From NCBI RefSeq assembly GCF_004310325.1, contig NZ_SIRT01000001.1, positions 248,001 to 312,000 on the forward strand: DNA of 64,000 nt, given 5' to 3'. The position numbers were made by a program, and so were the translations under genes. This stretch comes from Hyunsoonleella flava. Lineage in GTDB: Bacteria; Bacteroidota; Bacteroidia; Flavobacteriales; Flavobacteriaceae. Shown one piece after another: positions 28,449 through 52,236 of this stretch (the first letter of the stretch is position 1; every line of letters begins with the position of its first letter). The notes below the pieces were generated by a model. The model saw only the letters and a program-made list of their open reading frames with translations. It made no database searches and had not been told where the DNA came from.

Positions 28449-29585
28449 TTAAATAGCATTATTGATTATCCTTAAAAGATCTTTATTTATAATATTTACG
28501 TCAAACCTTCTTTCTGCATAGGCCCTACTGCTTAGTCCCATTTCAGTAAGACGTTTGGGGTTTAGAATAAAAAATTCCATGGCATCCACTAGTGCTTCTA
28601 AATTTTGAATTGGTATTAAGAAGCCGTTCTCTTTATGAATTACCGTTTCTCTGCATCCTGGCGTATCAGTAGTAATAATTGGCATACCCACGGATAAAGC
28701 TTCAAGAATAGATCTGGGCACCCCTTCTCTATAATATGTTGGTAACACGAAAACATCTCTTTGTGACAAATGTTCGGCAATGTTTGACTGTGCTCCATGA
28801 TATACCAAAGTGCCGTTGTTATGTAGTACATCCAATTCCTCTATTTTCACCGCTGATGGTGAATTTCCAGGAGCTCCAATAATATGAAACTCAGAATTAG
28901 GATATTTCGGTTTTAAAATTTTAGCTGCTTCTATAAAAAGTGATGTTCCCTTTTCGCGAATTAGTCTGGTAACGATTATAAAACTTGCGGATTCATCGGA
29001 TTTTAGATTTTTCCTAAACTTGAATTTTTCCAGATTTACTCCAGAGCCACTTACAACCTCCGTTTTATTTTGTTTGGTTAAAATTTTCCTATCCATAAAT
29101 AGATTTTTGTCATCGACATTTTGAAAAACAACAACCTTATTTTTTCTGATAGAGCGCTTGTATAAAAATTCGTTAAGCTTTTGCAGTGCTTTTGATTTAA
29201 GACTCAATCCCGTAAACGTAAAACCTAAACCAGTAATTAGCGAAACCACAGGAACTTTACACATGTTTGCTGCTACTGAACTATATATTACAGGTTTTAT
29301 GGTATATGGAAATACCAAGTCTATTTTTTTATTTCGAATTATTCTTTTTAATTCTAAAATGGTTTTGAAATCTACAAATGGATTTAAGCCAGTTCTTTGT
29401 AGATTAAATGCTACAGGAATAGCGCCTAGACCCTCAATTTCCTTATGATTTTCAGGCGTAAATCCGGGTGCACCAGCATAAACTTCGTATCCATTGGAAA
29501 TAAGACTTTTTATAAAGTCCCCTCTAAAATTCGTTAGTGAATTCGCCAAGGATGAAACAATCAATATTCTTTTTTTATTGCTCAT
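28449..29585 (-). CDS. Glycosyltransferase family 4, copy 1
   Basis: 378 residues, GT-B fold. N-terminal RILIVSSLANSLTNFRGDFI, middle SLITGLGFTFTGLSLKSKAL (membrane-associated, PglA/CapM-like), C-terminal donor site SFIIVTRLIREKGTSLFIEA and VFVLPTYYREGVPRSILEAL with the Glu-x7-Glu pattern. It adds a sugar to the undecaprenyl-linked intermediate. It is the last gene of the long minus-strand operon and follows asnB-1 with a 5-nt gap. Confidence 0.93.
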   Translation of the reverse strand: MSNKKRILIVSSLANSLTNFRGDFIKSLISNGYEVYAGAPGFTPENHKEIEGLGAIPVAFNLQRTGLNPFVDFKTILELKRIIRNKKIDLVFPYTIKPVIYSSVAANMCKVPVVSLITGLGFTFTGLSLKSKALQKLNEFLYKRSIRKNKVVVFQNVDDKNLFMDRKILTKQNKTEVVSGSGVNLEKFKFRKNLKSDESASFIIVTRLIREKGTSLFIEAAKILKPKYPNSEFHIIGAPGNSPSAVKIEELDVLHNNGTLVYHGAQSNIAEHLSQRDVFVLPTYYREGVPRSILEALSVGMPIITTDTPGCRETVIHKENGFLIPIQNLEALVDAMEFFILNPKRLTEMGLSSRAYAERRFDVNIINKDLLRIINNAI

Positions 29586-29590
29586 TAATT

Positions 29591-31489
29591 TTATTTTAAA
29601 TAAATGTTGCTATACCATTTTTGAAAACAATAAAAAGCCCATACTCTAAACGTATTATCGCGTTTACTGTCTAAATGATTTTTTACTAAAGGTATTATCT
29701 TATTTAGGTTAAAGATACCTTGAGCTGTTAAATATTGAGGTTCAATATAGAATTCCAGCTCTTTTCTCAAACTGGATTTAAGCCAGTTACCTACTGGAGA
29801 GCCAAACCCCATTTTACTTTTCTCTAGAAATTCCTCCGGAAATTGATCTTTGAAGGCCTCTTTTAAGATGTACTTTTTGTTCCACCCATTCATCAGGTAC
29901 TTTTCAGGAAGGGTATTTGTATAATCCCAAATTTTCTTATTCAAGAACGGTGCTCTACACTCCAAAGAGTTTTGCATACTTGTTCTGTCTACTTTAGCAA
30001 GCATTCCGCCTTCTAAACTTAAAATTTTATCCACATGCCTAAAATCCGTGAGCGATTCAACTTTACTATTGTACAGTTTTTCTTTGTAGTCTCCGAACAA
30101 GTGGTCTTCATAAACATTAGGATTTAATATTTCGGCCAACTCGTCTTCCGTATTCGCCAAAGAAATAATATCCCAATAGGAATTACCCTTATAATCAACT
30201 GCTCTTAGCATTTTTCTTATCTTGAATCTTCTACCTCTGTTGTCATCTTTGGTAGCAAGAAGAAATTTTGAAGACTTCAATAATACATTATGAATGGGTT
30301 TAGGTACAAAATTGGTATATCTGCTATTCATCTTACCAACATAGTATTTGTTATACCCCCCAAAAACCTCGTCGCCGCCGTCTCCAGTTAAAGCAACCTT
30401 AACATAATCTTTTGTTTTTTTAGATACAAAATAGGTGGGAAGGGCAGCGGTATCAGAAAAAGGCTCGTCAAAATTTAAAAGTATTTCATGTATGTTGTCT
30501 TTTAAATCATTCTCTCCAATTTTAAACTCATGGTGATTACTATTGATCATTTTAGCCACCAACTGGGATTTATCGGTCTCATCTTTCTTGGCTTCAGAAA
30601 AGCCTATGGAGAATGTTTCAATTTTTTTGCCAGTGGATTGTGATAAACACAGTGACACTACTGAAGAGTCTACACCACCAGATAAAAATGTTCCCAAAGG
30701 GACATCGGCAATAGACCTACTTTCTACGCTTTCGTACACTAAATCCTTGATTTTTTTCTTAGCTTCATCAAAAGGCACCGATTGCTCTTTAGGTTTTATT
30801 TCTTGGGCTATCTGCTTTATACTTATTTCATGGTTTGCTAAATTATATTCAATATAATGATTTGCTTCAAGTTTCAAGATATTGTCATAAATACTATAAG
30901 GAGCTGGCACATAAGTGAGTCTTAAAAATAAATTAAGTCCTTTTTTCGAAATTTCTGGTTTAACAGGTAATACATTAATAATGGATTTTAACTCTGATGC
31001 CCAAATAAATTGCTTGTTATTATTTGTGTAGTAGAGTGGTTTTTCTCCAAAAAAGTCTCTCGCAATAAACACCTTATTGATGTTCTTATCAAAAATACTA
31101 AAGCCATACATACCGTCGAGCCATTTAAAGGATTCTACGCCATATTTTTCATAGAGCTTTAAAATCACTTCTGTATCGCTGGTAGTTTTGAATTTTACCC
31201 CAGCTGCCTCAAGGTCTGCTTTAAGGCTCCTATAATTATAAATTTCACCATTAAAAACAATAACAATTTTTTTGTCGTTTGAATAAATTGGCTGCTTACC
31301 AGAGGATAAATCTATGATGGAAAGTCTTCTCATTGCCATTCCCACACCATAATCCTTTTCTGTATTTGCCGTAAAACCGTCTTCGTCTGGTCCTCTATGA
31401 ATAATTAAATTATTCATTTTGGTTAATGTTGCAGTTATTTCAGTTTCGCTACAACTTGTTTTACGTATTATTCCATTAATTCCACACAT
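29591..31489 (-). CDS. asnB: AsnB-type glutamine-dependent amidotransferase, copy 1
   Basis: 632 residues. Class II glutaminase domain with the N-terminal nucleophile Cys2 (MCGINGIIRK), RRLSIIDLSSGKQPI and VFNGEIYNYRSL. The C-terminal synthetase domain has the PP-loop LSGGVDSSVVS at about residue 270 and ALTGDGGDEVFGGYNKYY. Sequence alone fits asparagine synthetase, but the context (GT4 neighbours, uronate genes) suggests it amidates the carboxyl group of a uronic acid, as proposed for WbpS and WbtH. Both domains are intact. Gap to the GT4 at 28449 is 5 nt. Confidence 0.9.
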   Translation of the reverse strand: MCGINGIIRKTSCSETEITATLTKMNNLIIHRGPDEDGFTANTEKDYGVGMAMRRLSIIDLSSGKQPIYSNDKKIVIVFNGEIYNYRSLKADLEAAGVKFKTTSDTEVILKLYEKYGVESFKWLDGMYGFSIFDKNINKVFIARDFFGEKPLYYTNNNKQFIWASELKSIINVLPVKPEISKKGLNLFLRLTYVPAPYSIYDNILKLEANHYIEYNLANHEISIKQIAQEIKPKEQSVPFDEAKKKIKDLVYESVESRSIADVPLGTFLSGGVDSSVVSLCLSQSTGKKIETFSIGFSEAKKDETDKSQLVAKMINSNHHEFKIGENDLKDNIHEILLNFDEPFSDTAALPTYFVSKKTKDYVKVALTGDGGDEVFGGYNKYYVGKMNSRYTNFVPKPIHNVLLKSSKFLLATKDDNRGRRFKIRKMLRAVDYKGNSYWDIISLANTEDELAEILNPNVYEDHLFGDYKEKLYNSKVESLTDFRHVDKILSLEGGMLAKVDRTSMQNSLECRAPFLNKKIWDYTNTLPEKYLMNGWNKKYILKEAFKDQFPEEFLEKSKMGFGSPVGNWLKSSLRKELEFYIEPQYLTAQGIFNLNKIIPLVKNHLDSKRDNTFRVWAFYCFQKWYSNIYLK

Positions 31490-31504: not shown

Positions 31505-32644
31505 TTAGTTTAATATGAAGTTTTTAAACTGTGAGTAAATATTGGTTAGCAAATAATCGTTTGATCTTTCTAAGCTTAGTTTACTATACCTTTCTCGTTC
31601 ATTAGGATTGTTTTGCAAATAAATTAAGGCTTTTTCCAACGCAACATGATCATCGTTATTTACTAAAATTCCATATTTAGCTTTATAAAACTCTTCTTTA
31701 TTAATATGCACAGGTTTATTATCGTTTAATAATTCTAGAGGCCCTGATAAACAGTTACTAGAGATGGAGGGTAGTCCTATAGCCATAGCTTCTAACAAAG
31801 CATTAGGAAACCCTTCGGTAAATGATGATAGAATAAAACAATTGCTTTTTATCAAATAGTCATTTACATCCTTAACCTTACCTTTTAATTGAACTTTATC
31901 ATTTAAATTTTTTGAATTTATTTCGTAGTTTAAATAATCTTCAAGCTCTCCGCCACCTAAAATAGTCACATTAAAGTCAAATTTTAAATTTTCAACCGCT
32001 CTAACTATCATAATTTGGTTTTTTCTTTTATTTAAAGTTCCAGCAGTAATGATGTTTATAGGAGATTCAGTATTCAATTCATTGGATTTTATAATTTTTT
32101 TTGGCTGTTCTATTGGATTATAAATAATTTCCATGGGTATTTTAACACCAAAATTTTCTTTTAGATCATTGTTGATGTGAACAGAGTTAGAAAACAACTT
32201 GTCACACCTGTTGTATAAAAGAGGGTAGAACACTTTAGAGATATAATGTGAGATTTTACTACTTGTATTGTCTGACGGAAAACCTCTTTCACTTATAAAA
32301 GTTTTTGGTTTTTTGTTTATTATCGAAATGATGCCGGTTAATAAATTTGGAAACGCTAGAAACGATACAGCATAATCTATCTTCTTTCTTTTAATGGTTT
32401 TGTTATAACTTCTTATAAACCTAAAAACATTAAAAACCTTTTCATAAAAGGGAATATTGTGATTCTTTTCACTTAGAATAACAATATCAACTTCTTGAGG
32501 TACAGGAAAATGTATTTCGTTGTAAAATAAGATTAAAGTAACGTTAAAATCTTTTACCAATTTCTTAAGCAAAAGACTTATTACTTTTTCAGCTCCACCA
32601 CTGGTAAGGCTAGTATTAATTATGCTAAGGTTTGGTTTTTGCAT
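31505..32644 (-). CDS. Glycosyltransferase family 4, copy 2
   Basis: 379 residues, GT-B fold with an N-terminal block NTSLTSGGAEKVISLLLKKL and C-terminal donor site INIITAGTLNKRKNQIMIVR, FILSSFTEGFPNALLEAMAI and SGPLELLND. It probably adds one sugar of the repeat unit. The gene sits between asnB-1 and asnB-2 (15 and 45 nt gaps). Confidence 0.93.
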   Translation of the reverse strand: MQKPNLSIINTSLTSGGAEKVISLLLKKLVKDFNVTLILFYNEIHFPVPQEVDIVILSEKNHNIPFYEKVFNVFRFIRSYNKTIKRKKIDYAVSFLAFPNLLTGIISIINKKPKTFISERGFPSDNTSSKISHYISKVFYPLLYNRCDKLFSNSVHINNDLKENFGVKIPMEIIYNPIEQPKKIIKSNELNTESPINIITAGTLNKRKNQIMIVRAVENLKFDFNVTILGGGELEDYLNYEINSKNLNDKVQLKGKVKDVNDYLIKSNCFILSSFTEGFPNALLEAMAIGLPSISSNCLSGPLELLNDNKPVHINKEEFYKAKYGILVNNDDHVALEKALIYLQNNPNERERYSKLSLERSNDYLLTNIYSQFKNFILN

Positions 32645-32689: not shown

Positions 32690-34543
32690 TTATTTTATAG
32701 AAAAACCTGAACCATTTTTATTTATCCACTGTTTTAGAACTAAAATTTTCCAAATTATGGTATAATTGTTAGAAGTTCCGTCCATATGATTGTTAATTGT
32801 TTTTGTAACTTCTCCGGCATTAATGCCTGGAATTAATTTCAGACTTTTTTCGTTCAATTCATCTAGAATAAATTCTTTTAAGTCATTTTTAAACCATTCC
32901 TTAAAAGGCATGGTGAAACCAGCTTTAGGTCTATCAAAAATTTCTTTGGGGACATGTTTATAAAGCACGTCTTTTAAAATTCTTTTTTGATTATTTTTTT
33001 GAAATTTAAAGTTCGTGGGCAACGACCTAGCAAAATCTACAATGGTGTAGTCCATTAAAGGTGCTCTCGCTTCTAATGAATAAGCCATAGTCGCTCTATC
33101 AACTTTTGTGTTTATATCCATGTTTAAATAGGTTTTGATGTCAAAATCTGATACCCGCTCATAAATATTTTTATTATTATGAAAAAGGTATTTTAACTCA
33201 TCAAAAGCATAATTATCATCAAAAGAATTTTCATATAAATTAGAATCAGGGTGATATAATATACTTAAATATGCATCAGATGCACTTTTATTTTTAATTA
33301 CATCAGCAATCATTTTAAATTTATAATAAGGCAAACTATTTAAAAAAGTTGCACCAAACAGTCTTAGAGCCTTAGGTGCTTTGTATATGTTATTGATATA
33401 TTTTACCCAGTTGTACCTATGATAGCCTATAAAGCTTTCATCTCCTCCGTCTCCTGATAAAGCAACAGTTACATGTTGTTTAGTATATTTAGATAATAAC
33501 ATTGAAGGGATTGCTGATGGGTCTGCAAATGGTTCATCGTAATAATGACTAAAGTTCTCTATTAAATCTATACCTTCATTATAATTGCATTCAATAACGT
33601 GATGATTAGTTTTAATATGATCCGCAACTTGTTTTGCATATATGCTTTCATCAAATCCTTTTTCGTTAAATTTTACTGAAAACGTATTTATTTTTTCATT
33701 AGTAGTTTTAGTTGCCAATGCTGCTATCAGTGATGAATCTATCCCTCCCGATAAAAAGACTCCAACGGGTACATCAGCAAACAATCTTCTTTTTACAGCT
33801 TTAGTGGCTAATTCTTCAAGCTCTTCAATAGCTTGATTGTAAGAGCCTTGAAACTTATTTACGTTTTTGTAATCGATGTCCCAATATTGATTACTAACAA
33901 AACTTCCTGATTTTAAATTGAATGTAAAATAATGACCGGCTTTTAATTTCTTAACTTCATTGAATATAGAATCTGTATCTGGTACGTAATCCCAAGATAA
34001 ATACTTGTGTATCGCTTTACTTGAAACCGATAGTTCTTTATGATATAATTGAATTGATGAAACTTGACTTGCAAATTCAAATCTTTTTTCATCATGAAAA
34101 TAGTAAAATGGCTTTTGACCTAATCTGTCACGGGCTCCAAAAAAAATTTGTTTTTTCATATCGTAAATAACAAATGCAAACATACCATTAAGTTTATTTA
34201 CGCATTTTTCTCCATATTCCAAATAAGCAGCACAAATTACTTCAGTGTCACTCGTAGTGTTAAATGTGTATCCTTTTTGTACTAAATCAGTTTTTAGTTC
34301 TCTAAAATTATAAATCTCGCCATTAAACACTATTTTTATATGTTCTTGGTAGCTGAGGGGTTGATTTGATCTAGGATCTAAATCGATAATAGATAATCTA
34401 TTATGTCCAAAAATTATATTAGAGTCATTGTAATTGTAAGATTCGAAGCCCATTTTATCTGGGCCTCTAAATGAAGTCCTTTTTAACTTATCTTTTATTT
34501 GATTTAATTCATAACGAATAGTTGTCCCATATATACCACACAT
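32690..34543 (-). CDS. asnB: AsnB-type glutamine-dependent amidotransferase, copy 2
   Basis: 617 residues with Cys2 (MCGIYGTTIRYELN), NRLSIIDLDPRSNQPL, VFNGEIYNFREL, PP-loop FLSGGIDSSLIAALA and SGDGGDESFIGYHRYN. Glutaminase and synthetase domains look complete. It differs clearly from copy 1 (for example IDSS for VDSS and many substitutions), so the copies are old paralogues. Likely role: transfer of the amide nitrogen to a uronic acid or its residue; asparagine synthesis cannot be excluded. 15 nt separate it from the GT4 at 34559. Confidence 0.9.
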   Translation of the reverse strand: MCGIYGTTIRYELNQIKDKLKRTSFRGPDKMGFESYNYNDSNIIFGHNRLSIIDLDPRSNQPLSYQEHIKIVFNGEIYNFRELKTDLVQKGYTFNTTSDTEVICAAYLEYGEKCVNKLNGMFAFVIYDMKKQIFFGARDRLGQKPFYYFHDEKRFEFASQVSSIQLYHKELSVSSKAIHKYLSWDYVPDTDSIFNEVKKLKAGHYFTFNLKSGSFVSNQYWDIDYKNVNKFQGSYNQAIEELEELATKAVKRRLFADVPVGVFLSGGIDSSLIAALATKTTNEKINTFSVKFNEKGFDESIYAKQVADHIKTNHHVIECNYNEGIDLIENFSHYYDEPFADPSAIPSMLLSKYTKQHVTVALSGDGGDESFIGYHRYNWVKYINNIYKAPKALRLFGATFLNSLPYYKFKMIADVIKNKSASDAYLSILYHPDSNLYENSFDDNYAFDELKYLFHNNKNIYERVSDFDIKTYLNMDINTKVDRATMAYSLEARAPLMDYTIVDFARSLPTNFKFQKNNQKRILKDVLYKHVPKEIFDRPKAGFTMPFKEWFKNDLKEFILDELNEKSLKLIPGINAGEVTKTINNHMDGTSNNYTIIWKILVLKQWINKNGSGFSIK

Positions 34544-34558: not shown

Positions 34559-35623
34559 CTATTTAAGAATTTGTAAGAACATGTCTTCGTATTCTTGAAG
34601 TATTTTTTCTTTGTTAAATTTTTTATAAACTGATTTTCTGATTAACTCAGGATTCCATTCATGTTTTTTATTTAGATACTCTATGTATTCTTTTTCGTTT
34701 TTTACTAGAAAACCATTTATTCCATGTTCCACAATTTCTTTGGTACCTCCAGGAACATCAAATGCAATTACAGGAATTCCTGCCACACAACTTTCCAATA
34801 GGGCATTAGGAAATCCCTCTACAAATGATCCTTGCAAAAACATATCATTTTTTGATAAAATTTGATTAACCTGTTTTGTAAATGGGATATGTACTAGTTT
34901 TTCTAAGACACCTAATTTCTTTGCTTCATTTAAAACGGCTTCTTTCTGATCTCCATCTCCAACGATTGTATAAGTAAAATTAAATTCAAGTTTTGAAAGT
35001 AATTTTATAATTCTCAAATGCCCTTTCTCTTTTGAGAGTCGCCCTACAGTAACAAACCTAATTTGAGTTTTATCTTTAGGTTCAATAGCAAGAGGTTCTA
35101 TATTTGAAATAGGGTTATTGATTATTTTTATTTTAAACTTTGATATGCCATAATTGTATATCATGTCTTTCGCCATATCTTCAGATTGACAAACAATTAT
35201 ATCTAGCTTCTTGTAAAACTTATTATTAAATAAATGCAATAAGTTCAGTCTTCTCTTTCTGACTTTCTTATCTTGACTCAAAATTGTTGCTTCTCTGCCT
35301 ATAAATTTAATCTTCCGAAAGAAGTAAGACATTAAGCCCATTGAAGCATTAACGTGTCCCATTGAACTCAGAACGATGTTTGGTCTATTTTTAAGCAAAA
35401 AGATAAAGAATAAGGGCACAGCAAATAACACTCGCTTCTTATTCAAATAAATCACCTCTATATTTTTAATGTCAAATGCTGCATCATGCTCGAAACCAGC
35501 AATTAATAGTTTTGAATTGAACTTATTTAAGTCAATGTTTTCAGCCACAAATGAAGTGATTCTTTCAGATCCTCCTGCAACTAATGACGGTAATACAAAT
35601 ACGATGTCAATTTTTTTTGTCAC
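34559..35623 (-). CDS. Glycosyltransferase family 4, copy 3
   Basis: 354 residues. N-terminal IVFVLPSLVAGGSERITSFV, FIGREATILS (acceptor side), C-terminal RFVTVGRLSKEKGHLRIIKL, MFLQGSFVEGFPNALLESCV and VPGGTKEIVEHGINGFLV. Standard GT-B donor domain. The substrate cannot be told. Sits between asnB-2 and an acyltransferase gene, all with gaps of 12-15 nt. Confidence 0.93.
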   Translation of the reverse strand: MTKKIDIVFVLPSLVAGGSERITSFVAENIDLNKFNSKLLIAGFEHDAAFDIKNIEVIYLNKKRVLFAVPLFFIFLLKNRPNIVLSSMGHVNASMGLMSYFFRKIKFIGREATILSQDKKVRKRRLNLLHLFNNKFYKKLDIIVCQSEDMAKDMIYNYGISKFKIKIINNPISNIEPLAIEPKDKTQIRFVTVGRLSKEKGHLRIIKLLSKLEFNFTYTIVGDGDQKEAVLNEAKKLGVLEKLVHIPFTKQVNQILSKNDMFLQGSFVEGFPNALLESCVAGIPVIAFDVPGGTKEIVEHGINGFLVKNEKEYIEYLNKKHEWNPELIRKSVYKKFNKEKILQEYEDMFLQILK

Positions 35624-35635: not shown

Positions 35636-36217
35636 TTAAATATGTTTTATTATTTTTTTTATATTGACTTTTCCAATAACTTTTGCAGGAACACCAGCTA
35701 TTGCAGTATTTTCTTCATGAAAAGATTTATTAACAACCGCATTTGCACCAATAGCTGTGTTATTTGCTATTTTAATATTGCCATATATTTTTGCTCCAGG
35801 GCCTATGTATACATTATCCCCTAATTGTGGCGCTTCTTTTTCTCCACCAGAAGCTCCAATATTTACACAAGCATGAATTCTGCAGTTTTTTCCAATTTTA
35901 GAAGCACTATTGATAACAATTGTACCGTAATGTACAATAGATAATCCTGGCCCAAATACATTAATAGGGATAGAAAACCCAAGTTTTAATGAAATGTTTC
36001 TAAACTTATATTTCAAATAATAAAAATATAACTTATTCAAACCTTTGTTTTTACAGTTGTTATAATACTCTAGTTGCCTTAATGTTTTTTGAAAAGACCA
36101 AATAAAATCAGGAAAAAAGGTGTTTTTTAACTTAAACTTAAAACTGTTAATATCTAGTCCAAGTGCAATAGCATCAGATTTCAAATACTCTTTATATGTG
36201 GCTTTGGATAGGATCAT
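35636..36217 (-). CDS. Left-handed beta-helix acyltransferase (serine acetyltransferase-like)
   Basis: 193 residues. Hexapeptide repeats cover about residues 85-180 (GPGLSIVHYGTIVINSASK, NCRIHACVNIGASG, NVYIGPGAKIYGNIKI). The catalytic His pair candidates lie at HYGT and RIHA. The N-terminal region differs from bona fide CysE. It probably O- or N-acetylates a sugar precursor. It is 12 nt from the GT4 at 34559 and 171 nt from asnB-3. Confidence 0.85.
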   Translation of the reverse strand: MILSKATYKEYLKSDAIALGLDINSFKFKLKNTFFPDFIWSFQKTLRQLEYYNNCKNKGLNKLYFYYLKYKFRNISLKLGFSIPINVFGPGLSIVHYGTIVINSASKIGKNCRIHACVNIGASGGEKEAPQLGDNVYIGPGAKIYGNIKIANNTAIGANAVVNKSFHEENTAIAGVPAKVIGKVNIKKIIKHI

Positions 36218-40199: not shown

Positions 40200-40205
40200 G
40201 ATAAT

Positions 40206-41549: not shown

Positions 41550-41568
41550 TTTTTTGGGGCTATTCTTT

Positions 41569-42663
41569 TTAATTCAATACTTTCTCAAATAAATGAGTCC
41601 ATTCTAATGTTACAGGTTTTGCTTCTAATGATGCAACACTTTTAATAGCATTGCGGCTAAATTTTTCTCTTAACTTTTCGTCATTCATTAGTTTCGTTAA
41701 ACGCGCTTCTAATTTTTTTTGATCATTAATAGGTATTAAATATCCGCTGTGATTATCCGTTATTAATTCCGAAGGACCAGTAGGACAATCAGTAGATACA
41801 CATGGAAGCCCAAAGTGCATGGCTTCTATTAAAGCATTAGGAGAACCTTCAAATAGGGATGTAAATGCAAAAATCTTAGATTTATTATAAAATTGAGCGA
41901 TATCTTTGGTTTGACCTAATAAAGTAATTTTATTATCTAAATTTAATGATTTTATTAGCTCTTCATAAGTTTTTTGATTTTCACCTTTTCCAATTATTAT
42001 TAATTTCCAATTGGCGCTATCTATGTTAGCAAAAGCTTTAATTAATACACCTTGAGCTTTCTGGTTGGTTAAGCTACCAACATTTAAAATGATATTTTCT
42101 TTTTTATAATTGATATCTCGTTCATTAGTTAGTTCCGGAGCTATAGGGTTTTTTAAAATGACTATTTTGTTTTTATTAATGATGGGTTCAAATTGTTTTT
42201 TCATTTCATCAGTTTGAACAACTAAAAATTCGGCTTTTTTGTATAATAATTTTCTTAAAACGCGCCATTGAAGTGGAGTGTTTGATTTGTTTGTATAATT
42301 ACGTTCACTAATTATGCATGGAATATTATTTTTTCTAGAAGCCAAAATAGCCAAAATGTTTGCACTAGTAATAAAGCCTATAAATAAATTAATTTTTTCT
42401 TTTTTTAAATAGTTGGATATTGTTTTATAAAGAGCATAATTTAATTTTATTCCTTGCAAAATGCTGTTACTTGCTTGATGTTGCTCTCTACAGTAAAATA
42501 ACTTTACATTACCATTAAGTTTATAGAAGGGTTCGTTTTTTGCTAAGCATATAATATGTACTTCATATTTTACCACAAGTTGATTAGAAAGATTTGTGAT
42601 AACACGCTCTGAACCACCAGCTTTTAAAGCTCCTATAATAAAAGAAATTTTCTTTTTATTCAT
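41569..42663 (-). CDS. Glycosyltransferase family 4, copy 4
   Basis: 364 residues. N-terminal SFIIGALKAGGSERVITNLS, then SERNYTNKSNT, C-terminal ILNVGSLTNQKAQGVLIKAF, IFAFTSLFEGSPNALIEAMH and TGPSELITDNHSGYLIP. Typical GT-B donor site. It follows the flippase with a 19-nt gap. Acceptor unknown. Confidence 0.93.
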   Translation of the reverse strand: MNKKKISFIIGALKAGGSERVITNLSNQLVVKYEVHIICLAKNEPFYKLNGNVKLFYCREQHQASNSILQGIKLNYALYKTISNYLKKEKINLFIGFITSANILAILASRKNNIPCIISERNYTNKSNTPLQWRVLRKLLYKKAEFLVVQTDEMKKQFEPIINKNKIVILKNPIAPELTNERDINYKKENIILNVGSLTNQKAQGVLIKAFANIDSANWKLIIIGKGENQKTYEELIKSLNLDNKITLLGQTKDIAQFYNKSKIFAFTSLFEGSPNALIEAMHFGLPCVSTDCPTGPSELITDNHSGYLIPINDQKKLEARLTKLMNDEKLREKFSRNAIKSVASLEAKPVTLEWTHLFEKVLN

Positions 42664-44469: not shown

Positions 44470-44475
44470 AAATGA

Positions 44476-44847
44476 TTATATAAGTTTTGGGATATATATT
44501 ATTAAGGTGATTAAAAGAGCTCCTAATGATGATATAGCCACTGCACCTGCTGCAATATCTTTAATAAAACCTATACGAACTTCAAAATCATCATGTACAA
44601 AATCGCATATCTTTTCTAGGCCAGTGTTTAAAGCTTCAATACTCATTACTAATACAATTGCAAAAATTTGAATAATCCATTCTAAAGATGTGATTTCAAA
44701 ATAAAAACCTGCGATTGTTAATAAAATAGCTATTGAAAATTGAACTTGAATACTAGACTCTGTTTTTAGCAATAAAAACATACCCTTAATTGCATATCCA
44801 ATGCTTTTATATCTATGTATGATGAAAGGTTCGTTTTTATTATTCAT
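44476..44847 (-). CDS. dgkA: Diacylglycerol/undecaprenol kinase
   Basis: 123 residues, three transmembrane helices. The motif SIEALNTGLEKICDFVHDDF, followed by FIKDIAAGAVAI, is diagnostic of DgkA, and the active-site Glu in LLKTESSIQVQF is present. It phosphorylates diacylglycerol to phosphatidate (or undecaprenol to its phosphate). It lies 6 nt before the EptA-like gene, a pairing that fits recycling of the diacylglycerol released by a phospholipid-headgroup transferase. Undecaprenol salvage is an alternative, equally useful for glycan synthesis. Confidence 0.92.
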   Translation of the reverse strand: MNNKNEPFIIHRYKSIGYAIKGMFLLLKTESSIQVQFSIAILLTIAGFYFEITSLEWIIQIFAIVLVMSIEALNTGLEKICDFVHDDFEVRIGFIKDIAAGAVAISSLGALLITLIIYIPKLI

Positions 44848-45001: not shown

Positions 45002-45910
45002 TTATTTATTAAGATCAATGCCAGTGTCTTTGTATATTAATTTTGATAATTCTTCCATTCCTGTTTTGTTTAAATGGTCTTCATTTTCAAAATATGTAGC
45101 GCTATTCAAACTTAGCGAATAATCTAAATTTTGGTCAAGATTTAACTCATTTATAAAAAGGTTTACCTTATCTAAATCTTCTTTATTACATTGTTTCAAA
45201 TAATGCTCATTGACTGGAAATCTAACACCTATTACCTTTACATTTCTTAATTTTAAATTATTTACTAATTTTTTATAGATTTCTAAATCTTCATCCCTAG
45301 TCATTATTCCATTGTGGTCTGTTATTCCAGTACTAGAAGCAATTTTTTCTTTTTCAGAACTAGAAATATCAGTCCATTTAATGGAGGTGTTATTATCACT
45401 TTTATTACCACCATTTCTGATGATAGAATATATGTTATTAAGAAAATATCTTAAGTAATTGTCGTTTAAAAGCGGTATTTTTTCTGTTATCAGGTTAAGT
45501 TTTGATTTATTATAAATTTCCTTTGAATTATTTAATTTTAATAAATATTTATTTAAGAATGTGCTATTTGAAGAGATGCTATTGTTAAACATTTGTGGCT
45601 CAGTTGAAATAAATACATATTTTAATTCTGGATTATATTTCTTTAGTATTAAAGTTTTTATATACATTTCTTTAATTCCATCCGCACCAAAGGCTAGGTT
45701 TCCAATGTTTTCAGATAAATTTAAAAGTTTTATTGATTCAGAATGTGAATCGCCTAAGAATACTACCTTGGGTTTAGAATTTATAATAGAGTCTATCCGA
45801 TTTGAATATTTACTTTCTTGCTTATAAAAAGGGCTTGTTTTGTAAACAAAAAAATTAATAGTAAAAAATACAATTAAAAATGGTGTTGCCTTTATTAAGA
45901 TACTTTTCAT
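45002..45910 (-). CDS. Membrane-anchored SGNH-like protein, copy 2
   Basis: 302 residues. One N-terminal membrane helix (about 8-24), then a periplasmic SGNH fold: block I PKVVFLGDSHSESIKLL with nucleophile Ser and block V SATYFENEDHLNKTGMEELS with the Asp-x-His. Because it follows the MBOAT at 45922 (11 nt), it probably completes acyl transfer in the way AlgJ/AlgX partner AlgI. A 154-nt gap separates it from dgkA. Confidence 0.82.
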   Translation of the reverse strand: MKSILIKATPFLIVFFTINFFVYKTSPFYKQESKYSNRIDSIINSKPKVVFLGDSHSESIKLLNLSENIGNLAFGADGIKEMYIKTLILKKYNPELKYVFISTEPQMFNNSISSNSTFLNKYLLKLNNSKEIYNKSKLNLITEKIPLLNDNYLRYFLNNIYSIIRNGGNKSDNNTSIKWTDISSSEKEKIASSTGITDHNGIMTRDEDLEIYKKLVNNLKLRNVKVIGVRFPVNEHYLKQCNKEDLDKVNLFINELNLDQNLDYSLSLNSATYFENEDHLNKTGMEELSKLIYKDTGIDLNK

Positions 45911-45921
45911 AATTGTATGTT

Positions 45922-47370
45922 TTAAAATTGAAAATAGATAAATTCTTGAGCACCATTAGTTGCTCTAAAGAATATTAGTAATAATAATAAAGAACAATAA
46001 ATTAGGGTCTTAACAGGAGTTCTGTAATGTCCAACTTGAAAAGAATAAGATGCATTTCTATTAGCTATCTCAAATACACTTAAATATATTAAACTAATAA
46101 CTATTATGATAGGTTGTATTGATGATCCCATCTCTTTAAAATAGCTAAGCGGGTTTACTAATATAGTACTAGACGCGATTTCAGAAATATAACTTATTGC
46201 ATGGGTAAATGATTCTGCTCTAAAAAATATCCAGGCAAAAGTAACAGCAATAAAGGTTATTGTAATATTGAATACTTTGACTAAACTTGCTGGTAAAATT
46301 TTTACAGTATTTAAGTTTTTACTATATGCAGTTTGAATGAAATAAAAGAGTGAGTGTAGAGCTCCCCAAATAATAAATGTCCAATTTGCACCATGCCAAA
46401 AGCCACTAACAGTAAAAGTAATTATAATATTTAATGATCTTCTTAAGCTAGAATCTACTTTACTGCCACCTAATGGGATATATACATAATCTCTAAACCA
46501 AGTTGATAAGGATATATGCCACCGTCTCCAGAAATCTTGAATGTTTTCTGCTAAATATGGCGATTTAAAGTTTTGCATTAAATCAATTCCCATCATCCTA
46601 GAAATACCAATGGCTATATCTGAATAACCTGAAAAGTCTCCATAAATCTGAAATGCAAAGAATATAACACCAATTACTAATACACTTCCTGGATAGCTAT
46701 CAGAGTTTTCGAATATTTGATTGGCATAAAACGCACAATTATCTGCAATGACTATTTTTTTGAAAAGGCCCCATAGTGCTTGTTTAGCACCCTCTTTAAA
46801 TTCAAAAACATCAAACTTTCTTTTCTTATTAAATTGTGGTAATAGGTGAGAGGCTCTCTCTATTGGTCCAGCAACTAATTGCGGAAAGAAAGAAACAAAC
46901 GTCATAAACTGAAGTAAGTTCTTATTAGAGTTCATTTTCCCTCTATAGATATCAATGGTGTAGCTCATAGTCTGAAAGGTATAGAAACTTATTCCTACAG
47001 GTAAAACTATCTTCAATAATAATGGATTAGATTCAAATCCAAATAGGGCTATGAAATCTGTAAAAGATTCAGTGAAAAAATTATAATACTTAAAGAAGCC
47101 TAGTATTCCTAGATTGATAAATAAACTTAAAATAAGAAGTCTTTTTCTCTGAATTTTATTACTATTTTCATCAATAGCTTTTCCAATTATATAGTCACTT
47201 ACTGAACTAATCAAGATTAAAGAAAGAAATCTCCAATCCCACCAGCCATAAAACACATAGCTGGAAATTAATAAGAGTGTATTTTGAAATTTTAAGTTAT
47301 TATACGATTTATAGTATAGGGAAAATACAATAACAAAGAAAACGACAAACTCGAAGGAATTGAAAAGCAT
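45922..47370 (-). CDS. MBOAT O-acyltransferase (AlgI/PatA-like), copy 2
   Basis: 482 residues, polytopic. Landmarks: SYVFYGWWDWRFLSLILIS, FKYYNFFTE, FFPQLVAGPIERASHLLPQF, YGDFSGYSDIAIGISRMMG, RRWHISLSTWFRDYVYIPLG and SGFWHGANWTFIIWGALHSL with the catalytic His. It ends FIYFQF like the other two copies. Overlaps no neighbour; the SGNH gene follows at 11 nt and the uronate dehydrogenase precedes at 23 nt. Expected role: delivery of acyl groups to the periplasm for the SGNH partner. Confidence 0.95.
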   Translation of the reverse strand: MLFNSFEFVVFFVIVFSLYYKSYNNLKFQNTLLLISSYVFYGWWDWRFLSLILISSVSDYIIGKAIDENSNKIQRKRLLILSLFINLGILGFFKYYNFFTESFTDFIALFGFESNPLLLKIVLPVGISFYTFQTMSYTIDIYRGKMNSNKNLLQFMTFVSFFPQLVAGPIERASHLLPQFNKKRKFDVFEFKEGAKQALWGLFKKIVIADNCAFYANQIFENSDSYPGSVLVIGVIFFAFQIYGDFSGYSDIAIGISRMMGIDLMQNFKSPYLAENIQDFWRRWHISLSTWFRDYVYIPLGGSKVDSSLRRSLNIIITFTVSGFWHGANWTFIIWGALHSLFYFIQTAYSKNLNTVKILPASLVKVFNITITFIAVTFAWIFFRAESFTHAISYISEIASSTILVNPLSYFKEMGSSIQPIIIVISLIYLSVFEIANRNASYSFQVGHYRTPVKTLIYCSLLLLLIFFRATNGAQEFIYFQF

Positions 47371-47393
47371 ACCTTATCTCTTTATTGGATAGT

Positions 47394-48674
47394 TTATAAT
47401 CTACCTGAAACTTTATCTTTAATAATGCCTTTAACATCATAGACAAGTCCATTTTCGACTAATAAATCATCAAAATTTATATCCAAGAACTCTGCATGGG
47501 ATACACCTAGTATAACAGTGTCAAAAGTATCATTTGGTATTGAGTTAGTAGCTTCTAGGTTGTATTCATGCATTACCTCTTCAGAATTAACCCAGGGATC
47601 ATGAATAGTTACGTCAAGGCCATACTCTTTTAAATGCTTTATTACATCTACTATTTTGGTGTTCCTAACGTCTGGACAATTTTCTTTAAACGTAATTCCA
47701 AGCATTAAGACTTTACCACCGTTAACCTTGATATCATTTTTAAGCATCATTTTTACTACTTCGCTAGCAACATATTGTCCCATGCTATCATTTACGCGTC
47801 TACCGGCTAAAATAATCTCAGGATGATAGCCAACTTCTTGGGCTTTTTGCGCTAAATAGTATGGGTCTACACCAATACAATGACCACCAACTAACCCAGG
47901 TTTAAATGGTAAAAAATTCCATTTGGTACCAGCGGCTTCCAATACAGAATGGGTGTCAATATCCATTAAATTAAATATTTTTGCCAACTCGTTAACAAAA
48001 GCAATATTGATATCTCGTTGTGAGTTTTCGATAACCTTAGCAGCTTCGGCAACTTTTATGGTAGGAGCAAGGTGTGTACCAGCTGTGATTATACTTGCGT
48101 ATAAATCATTTACTTTTTTTCCAATCTCTGGAGTAGAACCCGCAGTTACCTTTAAAATCTTATCAACTGTATGTTCTTTATCACCTGGATTTATGCGTTC
48201 AGGGGAATAACCAGCAAAAAAATCAGAGTTGAATTTAAGGCCACTTACTTTTTCTAAAATAGGAACACATTCATCTTCGGTAACTCCAGGGTATACCGTG
48301 GATTCATAAATAACTATATCTCCTTTTTTAAGCACTTTCCCAACAGTTTCACTAGATTTATATAAAGGTGTTAAATCTGGTCTTTTATTTTTGTCTATTG
48401 GCGTAGGTACCGTTACAATATAATAGTTACAATCTTTTATGTCATCTATTTTAGACGAACAGTATAGCCCGTTAGATGAATCATCGCTATCTTTTAGAAC
48501 CGCTTTTAAAATATTATCATCAATCTCTAAAGTAGCATCTTTTCCCTGTTGGAGTTCAGCAATTCGCTTTTCATTAATATCAAAGCCAACCACTGAATAT
48601 TTTGTTGCAAATAACCGGGCTAGAGGTAACCCTACATATCCTAATCCTATAATTGCTATTTTATCCATGTTCAT
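47394..48674 (-). CDS. UDP-N-acetyl-hexosamine 6-dehydrogenase (WbpO/TviB-like)
   Basis: 426 residues. NAD motif GLGYVGLPLARLF, then VTVPTPID, ESTVYPGVTEDECVPIL, GYSPERINPGDKEH, and the catalytic Cys266 in KPGLVGGHCIGVDPYYL. The GGHCIGVDPYYL type is that of WbpO, WbpA and TviB, which oxidise UDP-GalNAc or UDP-GlcNAc to the uronic acid. With the epimerase at 50069 it should give UDP-GalNAcA. It is separated from ugd by 5 nt. Confidence 0.93.
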   Translation of the reverse strand: MNMDKIAIIGLGYVGLPLARLFATKYSVVGFDINEKRIAELQQGKDATLEIDDNILKAVLKDSDDSSNGLYCSSKIDDIKDCNYYIVTVPTPIDKNKRPDLTPLYKSSETVGKVLKKGDIVIYESTVYPGVTEDECVPILEKVSGLKFNSDFFAGYSPERINPGDKEHTVDKILKVTAGSTPEIGKKVNDLYASIITAGTHLAPTIKVAEAAKVIENSQRDINIAFVNELAKIFNLMDIDTHSVLEAAGTKWNFLPFKPGLVGGHCIGVDPYYLAQKAQEVGYHPEIILAGRRVNDSMGQYVASEVVKMMLKNDIKVNGGKVLMLGITFKENCPDVRNTKIVDVIKHLKEYGLDVTIHDPWVNSEEVMHEYNLEATNSIPNDTFDTVILGVSHAEFLDINFDDLLVENGLVYDVKGIIKDKVSGRL

Positions 48675-48679
48675 AAATA

Positions 48680-50059
48680 TTATTGTCCTATTGAAGAATA
48701 TTCAAACCCTATTTCTTCCATTTCTGCTTTATCAAGTATATTTCTTCCATCAAAAATAAAAGCAGGTTTTTTCATTTCATTGTATATTTTTTTCCAATCA
48801 TAGGTTTTGAATTCGTCCCATTCTGTCATGATGGCAACCGCATGTGCATCTTTTAATGCTTCATATGGGGTTTCGGTTGCTGTTACAAGCTCATTATTTT
48901 CCTTTTCAGATCTAGTGTTTAAATAATTTAAATCTGATTGTATTTTAACATTTGAAACTTTAGGGTCATAAACAGCAATTCTTGCTTGCTCGTTTAATAA
49001 GTGATCCGCGACATAAATTGCTGCAGACTCCCTAGTGTCATTAGTATCTTTTTTAAATGCCCAACCCAAGAAACCTATTTTCTTTCCTGAAACCGTATTG
49101 TATAGTGTACTAATTAAGTTATCTGCAAATCGTCTTTTTTGATGATCGTTAAGAACGATAACCTGCTCCCAATAATCAGCAACGGCATTTAGATTATAAC
49201 TTCTTGCTATGTAAACAAGGTTTAGTATATCCTTTTGAAAGCATGATCCGCCAAAACCTACGGAAGATTTAAGGAACTTAGGGCCTATTCTCGAATCCAT
49301 ACCAATGGCTTTTGCCACTTCGTCAACATTTGCTTCTGTTCTTTCGCATAGTTCTGAAATAGCATTTATTGAAGAAATTCGTTGTGCTAAAAATGCATTT
49401 GCTGTAAGTTTTGATAATTCTGAAGACCAAACGTTGGTTCTTAAAATTTGTTCTTGAGGCACCCAGCTTCCATATATATTTGCTAAACTTTCTATGGCTT
49501 CTTCAGATTCTCCCCCAATTAAAACTCTGTCGGGGTTTAATAAATCTTGAATAGCAGTTCCTTCAGCTAGAAATTCTGGATTTGATAAAATATCAAAATT
49601 CACGTCGCTTCCAGTATTATCTAATATACTTTTTATGGCTTGCGCCGTTCTTACTGGTAGTGTAGATTTTTCAACTACTATTTTATCTGTTTTAGCCACG
49701 TTGGCAATGTTTCTGGCACAAAGCTCAACATATTTTAAATCTGCTGCCATCCCTTTTCCTTTACCATAGGTTTTGGTTGGCGTGTTTACAGATATAAAAA
49801 TCATTTCAGATTCATCTATAGCTTTATCAATCTCAGTGGAAAAAAACAGGTTTTTGCCTCGTGTTTCCTCGACAATTTCTGCTAAACCAGGTTCGTAAAT
49901 AGGTAGCTTAGAAACATTGGAATCATTCCAGGCATCAATCCGAGATTGATTTATGTCTACTATGGTTACCTTAATGTTTGGATTTTTCTTTGCAATAACT
50001 GCCATAGTTGGTCCTCCAACATAACCAGCACCTATACAACAAATTTTTGTTACTTTCAT
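48680..50059 (-). CDS. ugd: UDP-glucose 6-dehydrogenase
   Basis: 459 residues. Oxidises UDP-glucose to UDP-glucuronate with two NAD. NAD motif [17 protein letters not shown] at the N-terminus, [20 protein letters not shown] (the insert of eukaryote-like UGDHs), [20 protein letters not shown] and the catalytic Cys273 in [15 protein letters not shown]-terminal [14 protein letters not shown] is typical. The insert and GGPTMAV place it with the animal-like subgroup common in Bacteroidota. Confidence 0.96.
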
Positions 50060-50068
50060 TTTTATTGA

Positions 50069-51052
50069 TTATAAGTTTTTCCAATACCAATTAACAGCTT
50101 CTTTTAAACCGTCATTAATATTGTATTTGGGTTTATAGTTTAATAGTTTTTTTGCTTTATCTACAGAAGCTAAAGAGTGCGGGATATCTCCTGCTCTATT
50201 TTCTCGATGTTTTATTTCAACATTTTTTATAGAATCGTCAAACTCAGACAAATGCTTTTTTAATAATGTTGTTAGCTCCAATAGAGTTGTTCTGTCACCA
50301 TAGGCAACATTATATACCGTATTTAATGCCTCTTGGTTATCGGTGGTTATACAAAGCATATTCATTTGTACTACATTATCTATATATGTAAAATCTCTTG
50401 AGTAACTTCCGTCACCATTAATCATAGGAGATTCATGGTTTATAAATTGTTTTACAAATAAAGGGATTACTGCCGCATAAGCGCCGTTGGGGTCTTGCCG
50501 CTTGCCAAATACATTAAAATAGCGTAAGCCAATGGTATCTAATCCATAAGCTTTTTGGAAAATATCAGCATAAAGTTCATTTACATATTTAGTAATAGCA
50601 TAAGGTGATAAAGGTTTGCCAATTGTATCTTCCACTTTGGGTAGTGCTTCATGATCTCCATAGGTAGAAGAGCTGGCTGCATAAACAAAGCGTTTTATGT
50701 TGGCGTCCTTAGAAGCGACAAGCATATTTAAAAACCCGGATATGTTTACCTCATTAGAGGTTATAGGGTCATTTATTGATCTTGGGACAGACCCAAGAGC
50801 CGCTTGATGCAATACATAATCTGCATTTTCGCAAGCTTTACGACAATCCTCAAGGTTTCTTATGTCTCCTTCAATAAGTTTAAAATTAGTACTATCTAAA
50901 AAAGGCTTTATATTATCACGTTTACCAGTAGAAAAATTATCAAGGCAAACTGTTTTTATGTTATTGGAAAGCAATGTTTCACATAAGTTGGAACCAATAA
51001 ATCCAGCTCCACCGGTTACCAAAACGGTCTTATTTTGTAGATTCTGTAGCAT
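50069..51052 (-). CDS. UDP-GlcNAc(A) 4-epimerase (WbpP/TviC-like)
   Basis: 327 residues, extended SDR. TGGAGFIGSNLCETLL, then LHQAALGSVPRSINDPI with the Pro-Arg-Ser-Ile unique to WbpP/TviC-type enzymes, SSSTYGDHEALPKVED and SPYAITKYVNELYADIF with the YxxxK pair. C-terminal HRENRAGDIPHSLA. It interconverts UDP-GlcNAc and UDP-GalNAc or their uronic acids; which order the pathway takes relative to the dehydrogenase at 47394 is open. Nine nt to ugd. Confidence 0.93.
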   Translation of the reverse strand: MLQNLQNKTVLVTGGAGFIGSNLCETLLSNNIKTVCLDNFSTGKRDNIKPFLDSTNFKLIEGDIRNLEDCRKACENADYVLHQAALGSVPRSINDPITSNEVNISGFLNMLVASKDANIKRFVYAASSSTYGDHEALPKVEDTIGKPLSPYAITKYVNELYADIFQKAYGLDTIGLRYFNVFGKRQDPNGAYAAVIPLFVKQFINHESPMINGDGSYSRDFTYIDNVVQMNMLCITTDNQEALNTVYNVAYGDRTTLLELTTLLKKHLSEFDDSIKNVEIKHRENRAGDIPHSLASVDKAKKLLNYKPKYNINDGLKEAVNWYWKNL

Positions 51053-51213
51053 TTAAATTTGGGTTACTTGTTAATAGCAGCAGCAAATATGTAAAAAATT
51101 ATTCAAACACAGATTATTATTATACTAAGTTGATGTTTTTAACGATAAAAATCACTGCATTAAATTTTAAGGAGATTTAATCGGTAAAAATTGGGTATAC
51201 AACTAGTTACAAG

Positions 51214-52236
51214 TTATTTGTAATAAGATTTGTACCAATCAACAAAGGCTTTTACACCATGTTTTATCGATGTATTTGGTCTATAATCGTAGTCTTTTAT
51301 TAAGTCATCTACATTAGCCCAGGTACGCTCAACATCACCAGGTTGTATTGGCAACATGTTTTTTTCAGCTTCGGTGTTAAGATTAAATTCAATCTCTTTT
51401 ATAAAATCTAATAGCTTTACAGAATTGTTGTTGCCTATATTATATACTTTATATAGGACGTTGTTTTCTATTCTTTCTTCATTTGGATGTTCAAGAATTC
51501 TAACAACACCCTCCACGATATCATCAACATAAGTAAAGTCACGTTCCATTTTCCCATAGTTAAAAACTTTAATGGGCCTATTATTCACAATAGCATCAGT
51601 AAATAAAAACATAGCCATATCTGGCCTTCCCCATGGTCCATATACAGTAAAGAAACGCAGCCCTGTGGTTGGGAATTTGAATAGATGACTGTATGTGTGT
51701 GCCATTAATTCATTACTCTTTTTCGTAGCCGCGTACAAACTTATAGGGTTATCTACATTGTCTTCGGTAGAAAACGGAATTTTTTCATTTAAGCCATAAA
51801 CACTGGAACTACTTGCGTAAACAAGGTGCTTTATTTTGAAGTTTCTACAACATTCAAGAATATTTAAAAAACCAACAAGATTAGAATCTACATAAGATTC
51901 AGGGTTTTCTAAACTGTACCTTACTCCCGCTTGGGCAGCAAGATTACATACTACATCAAATTTTTCGTTTTCAAAAAGTTTAGGAAGTTCTTCGCGATTT
52001 TCTAAATTCATTCTTATAAATGAAAAGTTGTTAATGTTTTTGCTTTTACATAAACTGTTGAATGCAGAGGCTTGATCATTGTCAATGCCTAATTCTCTCA
52101 ACCTGTCAAACTTGAGTTTGGTATCATAATAGTCATTAATATTATCGAGTCCAACAACAATGTGCCCTTTATCCAGTAGAATTTTTGAAGTGAAGAAACC
52201 AATAAAGCCTGCGGCTCCAGTTACAAGTATTTTCAT
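51214..52236 (-). CDS. UDP-glucuronate 4-epimerase
   Basis: 340 residues, extended SDR. TGAAGFIGFFTSKILLDKGH with the following DNINDYYDTKLKFDRLRELG is diagnostic of the LpsL/Cap1J-type epimerases. Further blocks: NLAAQAGVRYSLENPESYVD, SSSSVYGLNEKIPFS, SLYAATKKSNELMAHTYS, FFTVYGPWGRPDMAMFLF and PGDVERTWANVDDL. It makes UDP-galacturonate from UDP-glucuronate. It heads the long minus-strand cluster. Confidence 0.95.
   Translation of the reverse strand: MKILVTGAAGFIGFFTSKILLDKGHIVVGLDNINDYYDTKLKFDRLRELGIDNDQASAFNSLCKSKNINNFSFIRMNLENREELPKLFENEKFDVVCNLAAQAGVRYSLENPESYVDSNLVGFLNILECCRNFKIKHLVYASSSSVYGLNEKIPFSTEDNVDNPISLYAATKKSNELMAHTYSHLFKFPTTGLRFFTVYGPWGRPDMAMFLFTDAIVNNRPIKVFNYGKMERDFTYVDDIVEGVVRILEHPNEERIENNVLYKVYNIGNNNSVKLLDFIKEIEFNLNTEAEKNMLPIQPGDVERTWANVDDLIKDYDYRPNTSIKHGVKAFVDWYKSYYK

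What the first reader, a model, noticed from the sequence alone, without database searches (positions are those of the whole stretch)
28449..52236. Three complete AsnB-type amidotransferases interleaved with GT4 genes, next to precursor pathways for three uronic acids
Seen in sequence: three intact AsnB homologues (29591, 32690, 36389) each with Cys2 and the PP-loop, alternating with GT4 genes at 28449, 31505 and 34559, and in the same minus-strand cluster the enzymes for UDP-GlcA (48680), UDP-GalA (51214) and UDP-GalNAcA or UDP-GlcNAcA (47394 plus 50069). Established: WbpS of Pseudomonas aeruginosa O6 and WbtH of Francisella are AsnB-like proteins assigned to uronamide formation. Inference: each copy amidates a different uronic acid residue, giving a polymer with up to three uronamides and reduced charge.
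Basis: partly seen in the sequence, partly recalled or inferred. Interest (0 to 1): 0.75.

Follow-up and report, generated by a model that had tools for sequence, protein, structure and literature searches.

The report
Triple sugar-amidating enzymes in polysaccharide locus
A flavobacterium carries three different enzymes that probably turn acidic sugars of its surface polysaccharide into neutral amides; each belongs to its own old lineage that relatives mix and match, so this is a rich example of a known kind of system rather than a new one.

Summary
Three intact Gln-dependent AsnB-fold amidotransferases (29591, 32690, 36389; 632, 617, 601 aa) lie among GT4 genes in a Wzx/Wzy-type operon that also encodes UDP-GlcA, probable UDP-GalA and UDP-GlcNAcA/GalNAcA synthesis. 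They are not housekeeping asparagine synthetases: all 75 orthologues examined share a GDxGDE motif and lack an Arg that AsnB keeps, as in a WbpS of P. aeruginosa O6 type, and 16 of 16 bearers among 37 family genomes also have AsnB or a GatB-AspRS-sized fusion for asparagine. The copies are three old orthologue groups (32-39% identical), found in 56, 30 and 11 of 397 family genomes, in six of seven possible combinations, with preferred GT4 neighbours; this favours one enzyme per residue. The locus is a mosaic: 16.5 kb is 84-90% identical to another genus, without copy 2. Against a simple reading, 25 of 53 related clusters have none of the four uronate genes in the fetched stretch, and copies 1 and 2 show no association with them. 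Three wbpS-like genes in one locus are already tabulated for Rubrivivax. Verdict: uronamide formation very likely, one residue per copy likely, three uronamides unproven. New member of a known kind.

The parts
29591..31489 (-). Copy A1: AsnB-fold, WbpS-type glycan amidotransferase, 632 aa
   Evidence: orthologues in 56 of 397 family genomes at E<=1e-180
32690..34543 (-). Copy A2: WbpS-type glycan amidotransferase, 617 aa
   Evidence: 30 of 397 genomes; AlphaFold model pLDDT 91.6, best PDB matches TsnB9 7ylz and AsnB 1ct9
36389..38194 (-). Copy A3: WbpS-type glycan amidotransferase, 601 aa, sister group of A2
   Evidence: 11 of 397 genomes
28449..29585 (-). GT4 glycosyltransferase, downstream neighbour of A1; 33% identical to the next glycosyltransferase after WbpS in the O6-type record (an IS element lies between there)
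31505..32644 (-). GT4 glycosyltransferase (PglJ-like, below cut-off), upstream neighbour of A1
34559..35623 (-). GT4 glycosyltransferase of the type that adjoins A2 in 22 of 25 clusters
35636..36217 (-). Hexapeptide acetyltransferase; similarity to G196 begins inside it, at about 35712
38194..38730 (-). Hexapeptide acetyltransferase
38714..39823 (-). Wzy-type polymerase candidate (PF04932 Wzy_C, 34.5 bits, cut-off 31.7; the family also holds O-antigen ligases)
40206..41549 (-). MurJ/Wzx-type flippase (PF03023; below the NCBIfam MurJ cut-off)
41569..42663 (-). Fourth GT4 glycosyltransferase (PglH-like, below cut-off)
42784..44469 (-). Sulfatase-fold membrane transferase weakly resembling phosphoethanolamine transferases (below cut-offs)
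44476..44847 (-). Diacylglycerol kinase DgkA
45002..45910 (-). Protein without Pfam match; probable partner of the O-acyltransferase
   Evidence: role inferred
45922..47370 (-). MBOAT O-acyltransferase
47394..48674 (-). UDP-HexNAc 6-dehydrogenase, 62% identical to the WbpO-type protein
48680..50059 (-). UDP-glucose 6-dehydrogenase
50069..51052 (-). UDP-HexNAc/HexNAcA 4-epimerase, 60% identical to the WbpP-type protein
51214..52236 (-). Probable UDP-glucuronate 4-epimerase
19240..19848 (+). Initiating sugar transferase candidate outside the operon (54% identical over 204 aa to a PF02397 protein of G008); a second at 16460-17107, minus

Best explanation
The 28449-52236 operon makes a Wzx/Wzy-type surface polysaccharide rich in uronic acids. 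Each of the three proteins hydrolyses glutamine at its Cys2 domain, passes ammonia to the PP-loop domain, adenylates the C6 carboxylate of a hexuronic or N-acetylhexosaminuronic acid and releases the primary amide, as proposed for WbpS/WbqG. The three are not redundant: each belongs to its own orthologue group, A1 and A2 with preferred GT4 neighbours, and each probably serves a different residue of the repeat, A3 most likely a GlcNAcA/GalNAcA made by 47394 and 50069. Shown here: domains, conserved Gln-site and PP-loop residues, clade, distribution, modularity. Inferred: chemistry, residues, stage (UDP-sugar or lipid-linked), number of amides in the polymer.
For: Tree: A1, A2, A3 are each one clade with SH-aLRT 100, apart from a clade of E. 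coli AsnB plus seven AsnBs (six of the family, one of the order) (quick method, no bootstrap). All 75 orthologues from the 53 fetched clusters keep Cys1, R49, N74, E76, D98 and the PP-loop Ser/Gly/Asp, have Asp in place of the Glu of GEGSDE and lack the Arg of TTIRAS, as do the WbpS of the O6-type locus and a Vibrio XrtA amidotransferase. They are the only PF00733 proteins of the genome; no AsnA; AsnRS present. In 37 family genomes (own included) housekeeping AsnB (18) and a GatB frame of about 1120 aa (16) exclude each other, p=9e-8, and 16 of 16 bearers of A1/A2/A3 have one or the other. WbpO/WbpP-type precursor genes in the operon. A1 with A2 in 17 of 397 genomes (4.2 expected by chance), A1 with A3 in 9 (1.6 expected). 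A2 beside a 34559-type GT in 22 of 25; A1 right after a 31505-type GT in 25 of 38 and right before a 28449-type GT in 26 of 38, types by best match of 40 bits or more. A3 with in-cluster TviB 11 of 12 against 16 of 41, p=0.002. dN/dS about 0.08 for A2 and A3. Published: deletion of P. gingivalis PGN_1234 (WbpS) loses the uronamide; an H. pullorum wbpS mutant stops at a disaccharide.
Against: No structure of the polymer is known. A1 and A2 show no association with uronate genes inside clusters (eight tests, all p>0.5). 25 of 53 clusters have none of UGD, GAE, TviB, TviC in the fetched stretch; one of these, G002, has a TviB-like gene about 13 kb from A1, just outside it, and G019, G026, G024 and G254 were fetched over less than 24 kb. 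Genome-wide TviB is in 66 of 71 bearers against 249 of 326 others (p=0.001), so five bearers lack it at the threshold, G019 among them though 99% complete. With stricter GT thresholds the A1 link holds for 31505-type (20 of 38 against 2 of 15, p=0.013) but not for 28449-type (11 of 38 against 1 of 15, p=0.14). p values ignore shared ancestry and many tests were made. Identity to WbpS is only 32%, and the tree resolves the position of WbpS weakly. The H. pullorum passages differ (HexNAcAN in results, HexNAcA in discussion). B. subtilis AsnB, AsnO and AsnH can each rescue an E. coli Asn auxotroph (passages of PMC8554201), so side activity on aspartate is not excluded. One enzyme may serve several residues or none.
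Confidence: 0.65

Rival explanations
1. Uronamide formation is right, but the copies do not map one to one: one or two amidate several residues or stages and another is a variant or partly redundant, so the polymer carries one or two kinds of uronamide.
For: Against G196, the window has an extra A2 but the same number of GT4-type genes recognisable by similarity, four, so A2 may add a modification without a new residue. A2 and A3 are sisters. 34 of 53 clusters hold a single copy.
Against: The groups are 32-39% identical, each occurs alone in some clusters, and selection is purifying for A2 and A3.
Confidence: 0.2
2. The copies amidate carboxylates other than uronic acids in the glycan (nonulosonic or carboxylic side groups), or join an amine or amino acid instead of ammonia.
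For: No in-cluster uronate association for A1 and A2. Amino-acid amides of uronic acids are known (Microbulbifer GalNAcA-D-Ala, passage). T. forsythia authors suggested an acetamidino role for their asnB (passage).
Against: The Gln site is intact in 75 of 75, pointing to ammonia as donor; uronate pathways lie in the window's own operon.
Confidence: 0.1
3. They are housekeeping asparagine synthetases that moved into a polysaccharide locus.
For: They are the only PF00733 proteins in the genome, and the NCBIfam asparagine synthase model TIGR01536 scores all three above its cut-off (447, 467 and 425 bits; cut-off 267).
Against: Clade, residues and copy patterns. Five of 12 genomes of the genus have no PF00733 hit above 22 bits, and all 12 have the GatB frame of about 1120 aa.
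Confidence: 0.04

Closest known systems
WbpS of P. aeruginosa O6 and WbqG of E. coli O121 (King et al. 2010, known here only from citing papers)
   Same: AsnB fold with GATase domain, GDGGDE motif, locus with WbpO/WbpP-type genes and GT4 neighbours (the record is named the O6 locus by gene order and recall)
   Different: 32% identity; one copy in the stretch seen; here three divergent copies plus UDP-GlcA/GalA genes
psc1 locus of Rubrivivax gelatinosus (PMC3684757, passages read)
   Same: three wbpS-labelled genes in one polysaccharide locus, one of them between group 1 glycosyltransferase genes, MBOAT and wzy nearby; three homologues listed in Thauera MZ1T, two distinct ones in Rhodoferax
   Different: 75 kb and 63 genes; Betaproteobacteria (recalled); those copies were not compared with these
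WbpS (PGN_1234) of Porphyromonas gingivalis (PMC7468200, passages incl. part of the abstract)
   Same: same phylum (recalled); deletion removes the uronamide of the A-LPS linking sugar
   Different: Wbp/Vim pathway for a di-N-acyl glucuronamide; sequence not compared here
XrtA/PEP-CTERM amidotransferase TIGR03108
   Same: best NCBIfam profile of all three copies (486, 498, 480 bits)
   Different: below its cut-off of 816.9

Membership tests
WbpS-type glycan amidotransferase | Cys2 glutaminase plus PP-loop synthetase domains, intact | tested here: met
   75 of 75 orthologues
WbpS-type glycan amidotransferase | groups apart from housekeeping AsnB | tested here: met
   SH-aLRT 100; but the fork joining WbpS to A2+A3 has 89 and is drawn open, A1 lies outside it, and the tool warns of long branches and odd letter make-up
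WbpS-type glycan amidotransferase | lies in a glycan locus with HexNAcA precursor genes | tested here: met
   in the window; 27 of 53 related clusters have TviB within the fetched stretch
WbpS-type glycan amidotransferase | forms a uronamide in vivo | not testable with these tools
   needs glycan chemistry
Housekeeping asparagine synthetase B | Glu of GEGSDE and Arg of TTIRAS (functional roles recalled) | tested here: not met
   0 of 75, against 8 of 8 AsnB (E. coli plus seven)
Housekeeping asparagine synthetase B | needed for Asn supply | tested here: inconclusive
   genomic pattern says no; no auxotrophy test
mDAP-amidating AsnB | GEGADE-type motif as in the Priestia protein used as stand-in (its mDAP role was not tested) | tested here: not met
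XrtA amidotransferase TIGR03108 | score above 816.9 | tested here: not met
   486, 498, 480
Wzx/Wzy polysaccharide locus | flippase, polymerase and initiating transferase | tested here: met
   polymerase score only just over its cut-off, polymerase and ligase not told apart; the two initiating-transferase candidates lie outside the operon

The most novel reading that the evidence does not exclude
A1, A2 and A3 are three residue-specific uronamide synthetases that Flavobacteriaceae exchange as cassettes with their GT4 partners, a combinatorial code that sets which uronic acids of the surface polymer are neutralised; the window's genome holds the full set and makes a repeat with three different uronamides.
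Probability: 0.35. Interest if true: 0.55.

Novelty: new member of a known kind. Interest (0 to 1): 0.35.

Why it matters
If each copy has its own residue, three paralogues in one operon make the open question of what WbpS-type enzymes recognise (UDP-sugar, lipid-linked sugar, linkage) directly testable by single deletions in one strain. It also warns annotators: the NCBIfam asparagine synthase model TIGR01536 scores all three above its cut-off, although they are very probably not the cell's asparagine source.

Tried and rejected
Recent duplication: rejected, since the copies are 32-39% identical and form three supported groups. Housekeeping asparagine synthetase: rejected on clade, residues and genome patterns. 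Assigning a sugar to A1 and A2 by co-occurrence of UGD, GAE, TviB or TviC inside clusters: no association. Searching E. coli genomes with copy A2 DNA for a relative: no match. A named flavobacterial polysaccharide with a uronamide: two search listings and 12 of 17 passages of one review showed none; no wider absence is claimed. dS for A1 against G009 and G008 could not be computed (returned -1).

Data handling: the tree used 71 of 112 collected sequences (12 of 38 A1, 10 of 25 A2, all 12 A3, all 37 others). The censuses scored at most three candidates per genome for A1-A3 and four for TviB, so counts are lower bounds. Of the 53 clusters, 46 were fetched over 40 kb, the window over 64 kb, and six over 14.5 to 23.6 kb. 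UGD counts only the window's type; another type, at 258-285 bits, lies in seven further clusters. Housekeeping AsnB and the fusion were called from profile hits and frame lengths; seven AsnBs were checked by sequence, and the fusion's domains only in the window's genome. The alignment for folding used 28 of 80 named relatives plus the three copies. Rechecked at the end: two-copy loci, combinations and the G002 case; counting G002 as having TviB gives p=0.0026 for A3.
Full report
Observation. Each amidotransferase carries PF13537 and PF00733 with intact signature residues. The order on the minus strand is, from upstream: 51214 GAE-like, 50069 WbpP-like, 48680 UGD, 47394 WbpO-like, MBOAT, a protein without Pfam match, DgkA, a sulfatase-fold transferase, GT4, MurJ-like flippase, Wzy candidate, hexapeptide acetyltransferase, A3, hexapeptide acetyltransferase, GT4, A2, GT4, A1, GT4. 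Two initiating-transferase candidates lie outside the operon, at 19240-19848 and 16460-17107. That the family is Flavobacteriaceae follows from named relatives of A2 (Psychroserpens, Gelidibacter, Xanthomarina, Bizionia) and from two named contigs (Xanthomarina, 164860 bases; Zhouia, 140360 bases) that have the lengths of family contigs.

Are they asparagine synthetases? The genome (3.8 Mb, 100% complete by the tool's table) has no other PF00733 protein and no AsnA, so this had to be tested. The tree puts E. coli AsnB and seven AsnBs (six of the family, one of the order) in one clade with SH-aLRT 100, away from A1, A2 and A3. On the alignment, 75 of 75 orthologues from the 53 fetched clusters (38 A1, 25 A2, 12 A3) keep Cys1, R49, N74, E76, D98 and the PP-loop residues, replace the Glu of GEGSDE by Asp and lack the Arg of TTIRAS; eight of eight AsnBs keep both (the roles of the two residues are recalled, and a Listeria paper speaks of Asp-binding D and R residues without naming positions in the passages read). 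The WbpS of an O6-type P. aeruginosa locus and a Vibrio XrtA amidotransferase share the state of A1-A3. The identification of the record as the O6 locus rests on its gene order and recall.

Where does asparagine come from? In 37 genomes of the family (own included), 18 have a housekeeping AsnB by hit pattern and 16, among them all 12 of the genus, have a GatB match inside a frame of 1117-1127 aa; none has both, three have neither (p=9e-8). In the window's genome that frame is one 1116-aa protein with GatB_N, GatB_Yqey, OB-fold, class II synthetase and GAD domains, behind an Amidase-family (GatA-like) gene and a weak GatC match (20.1 bits, cut-off 23), with a separate AsnRS. In the other 15 the AspRS half was not checked. 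tRNA-dependent asparagine synthesis with AsnRS present is published for Bdellovibrio (passages). All 16 A1/A2/A3 bearers among the 37 have AsnB or the long frame. So the copies are very probably not the asparagine source, though a side activity is not excluded.

Three orthologue groups. With E<=1e-180, A1 is in 56, A2 in 30 and A3 in 11 of 397 family genomes. By my reading of these lists A1 and A2 occur together in 17, start to start within 7 kb, A1 and A3 in 9, within 20 kb; all three in G000 and G405, and in the congener G008 outside the draw. Among 53 fetched clusters: A1 alone 19, A2 alone 13, A3 alone 2, A1+A2 9, A1+A3 7, all three 3; A2+A3 without A1 was not seen. Neighbours: A2 touches a 34559-type GT in 22 of 25 clusters; A1 follows a 31505-type GT in 25 of 38 and precedes a 28449-type GT in 26 of 38; A3 has no fixed neighbour (type by best match of 40 bits or more). 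Cluster-wide at stricter scores, 31505-type goes with A1 (p=0.013), 34559-type with A2 (p=0.008), 28449-type with A1 not significantly (p=0.14). A2 goes with the window's type of Wzy (20 of 25 against 3 of 28) and of the 41569 GT (19 of 25 against 3 of 28).

Mosaic. Window 35712-52240 is 84-90% identical in DNA to G196, a different genus, while the A1-A2 end is not; A3 is 95% identical to G196 but 62-65% to the three congeners that have it, A1 87% to congener G009. G196 has the same layout with the same number of recognisable GT4 genes but no A2. The locus is therefore exchanged in blocks, and A2 is an optional block.

Which sugar? 47394 and 50069 are 62% and 60% identical to the WbpO- and WbpP-type proteins. 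A3 goes with in-cluster TviB (11 of 12 against 16 of 41, p=0.002) and TviC (9 of 12 against 15 of 41, p=0.024); A1 and A2 do not (twelve tests). Genome-wide, 66 of 71 bearers have a TviB against 249 of 326 others. All 28 genomes tested hold at least one sugar dehydrogenase, and G016 (90% complete), which has A1 only, holds a single one, TviB-like. HexNAcA is thus the best general substrate guess, with A1 and A2 open.

Structure. The AlphaFold model of A2 (pLDDT 91.6) matches the hydroxyamidotransferase TsnB9 and then AsnB, so the fold is standard.

Known ground. WbpS-type enzymes are supported by mutants in P. gingivalis and H. pullorum (passages of both papers; the H. pullorum passages disagree on whether the mutant's second sugar is HexNAcAN or HexNAcA) and by King et al. 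2010 (seen only as cited). Three wbpS-labelled genes in one polysaccharide locus are tabulated for Rubrivivax, with transposon hits marked in two. Two copies within about 20 kb occur in 13 of the 80 loci, several of them outside flavobacteria. The finding is a rich new member of this kind. The division into three exchangeable orthologue groups did not appear in what I saw of search listings 46, 47, 56, 57, 73 and 82.

Noticed in passing
own genome G000, contig C11, locus L051:3752-7102 minus: One 1116-aa ORF fuses GatB to a bacterial-type AspRS, behind GatA-like and GatC-like genes. GatB frames of this length and housekeeping AsnB exclude each other in the family (16 and 18 of 37 genomes, none with both). 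The listings of searches showed no paper on a GatB-AspRS fusion.
   Followed up: partly
window 35712-52240: Block 84-90% identical in DNA to a genome of another genus, G196: horizontal exchange of most of the locus.
   Followed up: partly
window 42784-44847: Phosphoethanolamine-transferase-like protein next to DgkA, a pair that could recycle released diacylglycerol; both genes also in G196 and G007.
   Followed up: no
window 22973-25683: Nucleotidyltransferase, GDP_Man_Dehyd-type dehydratase and epimerase in a row: possible further NDP-sugar pathway beside the locus.
   Followed up: no
window 52670-54517 and 20018-28270: Pectate-lyase-like protein and short-chain dehydrogenase/gluconolactonase-type genes: uronate-degrading functions may flank the uronate-making operon.
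   Followed up: no
L065, L067, L068, L089: AsnB-like proteins of 562-574 aa with a DGQG(M/S)DE motif form a separate clade; role unknown.
   Followed up: no
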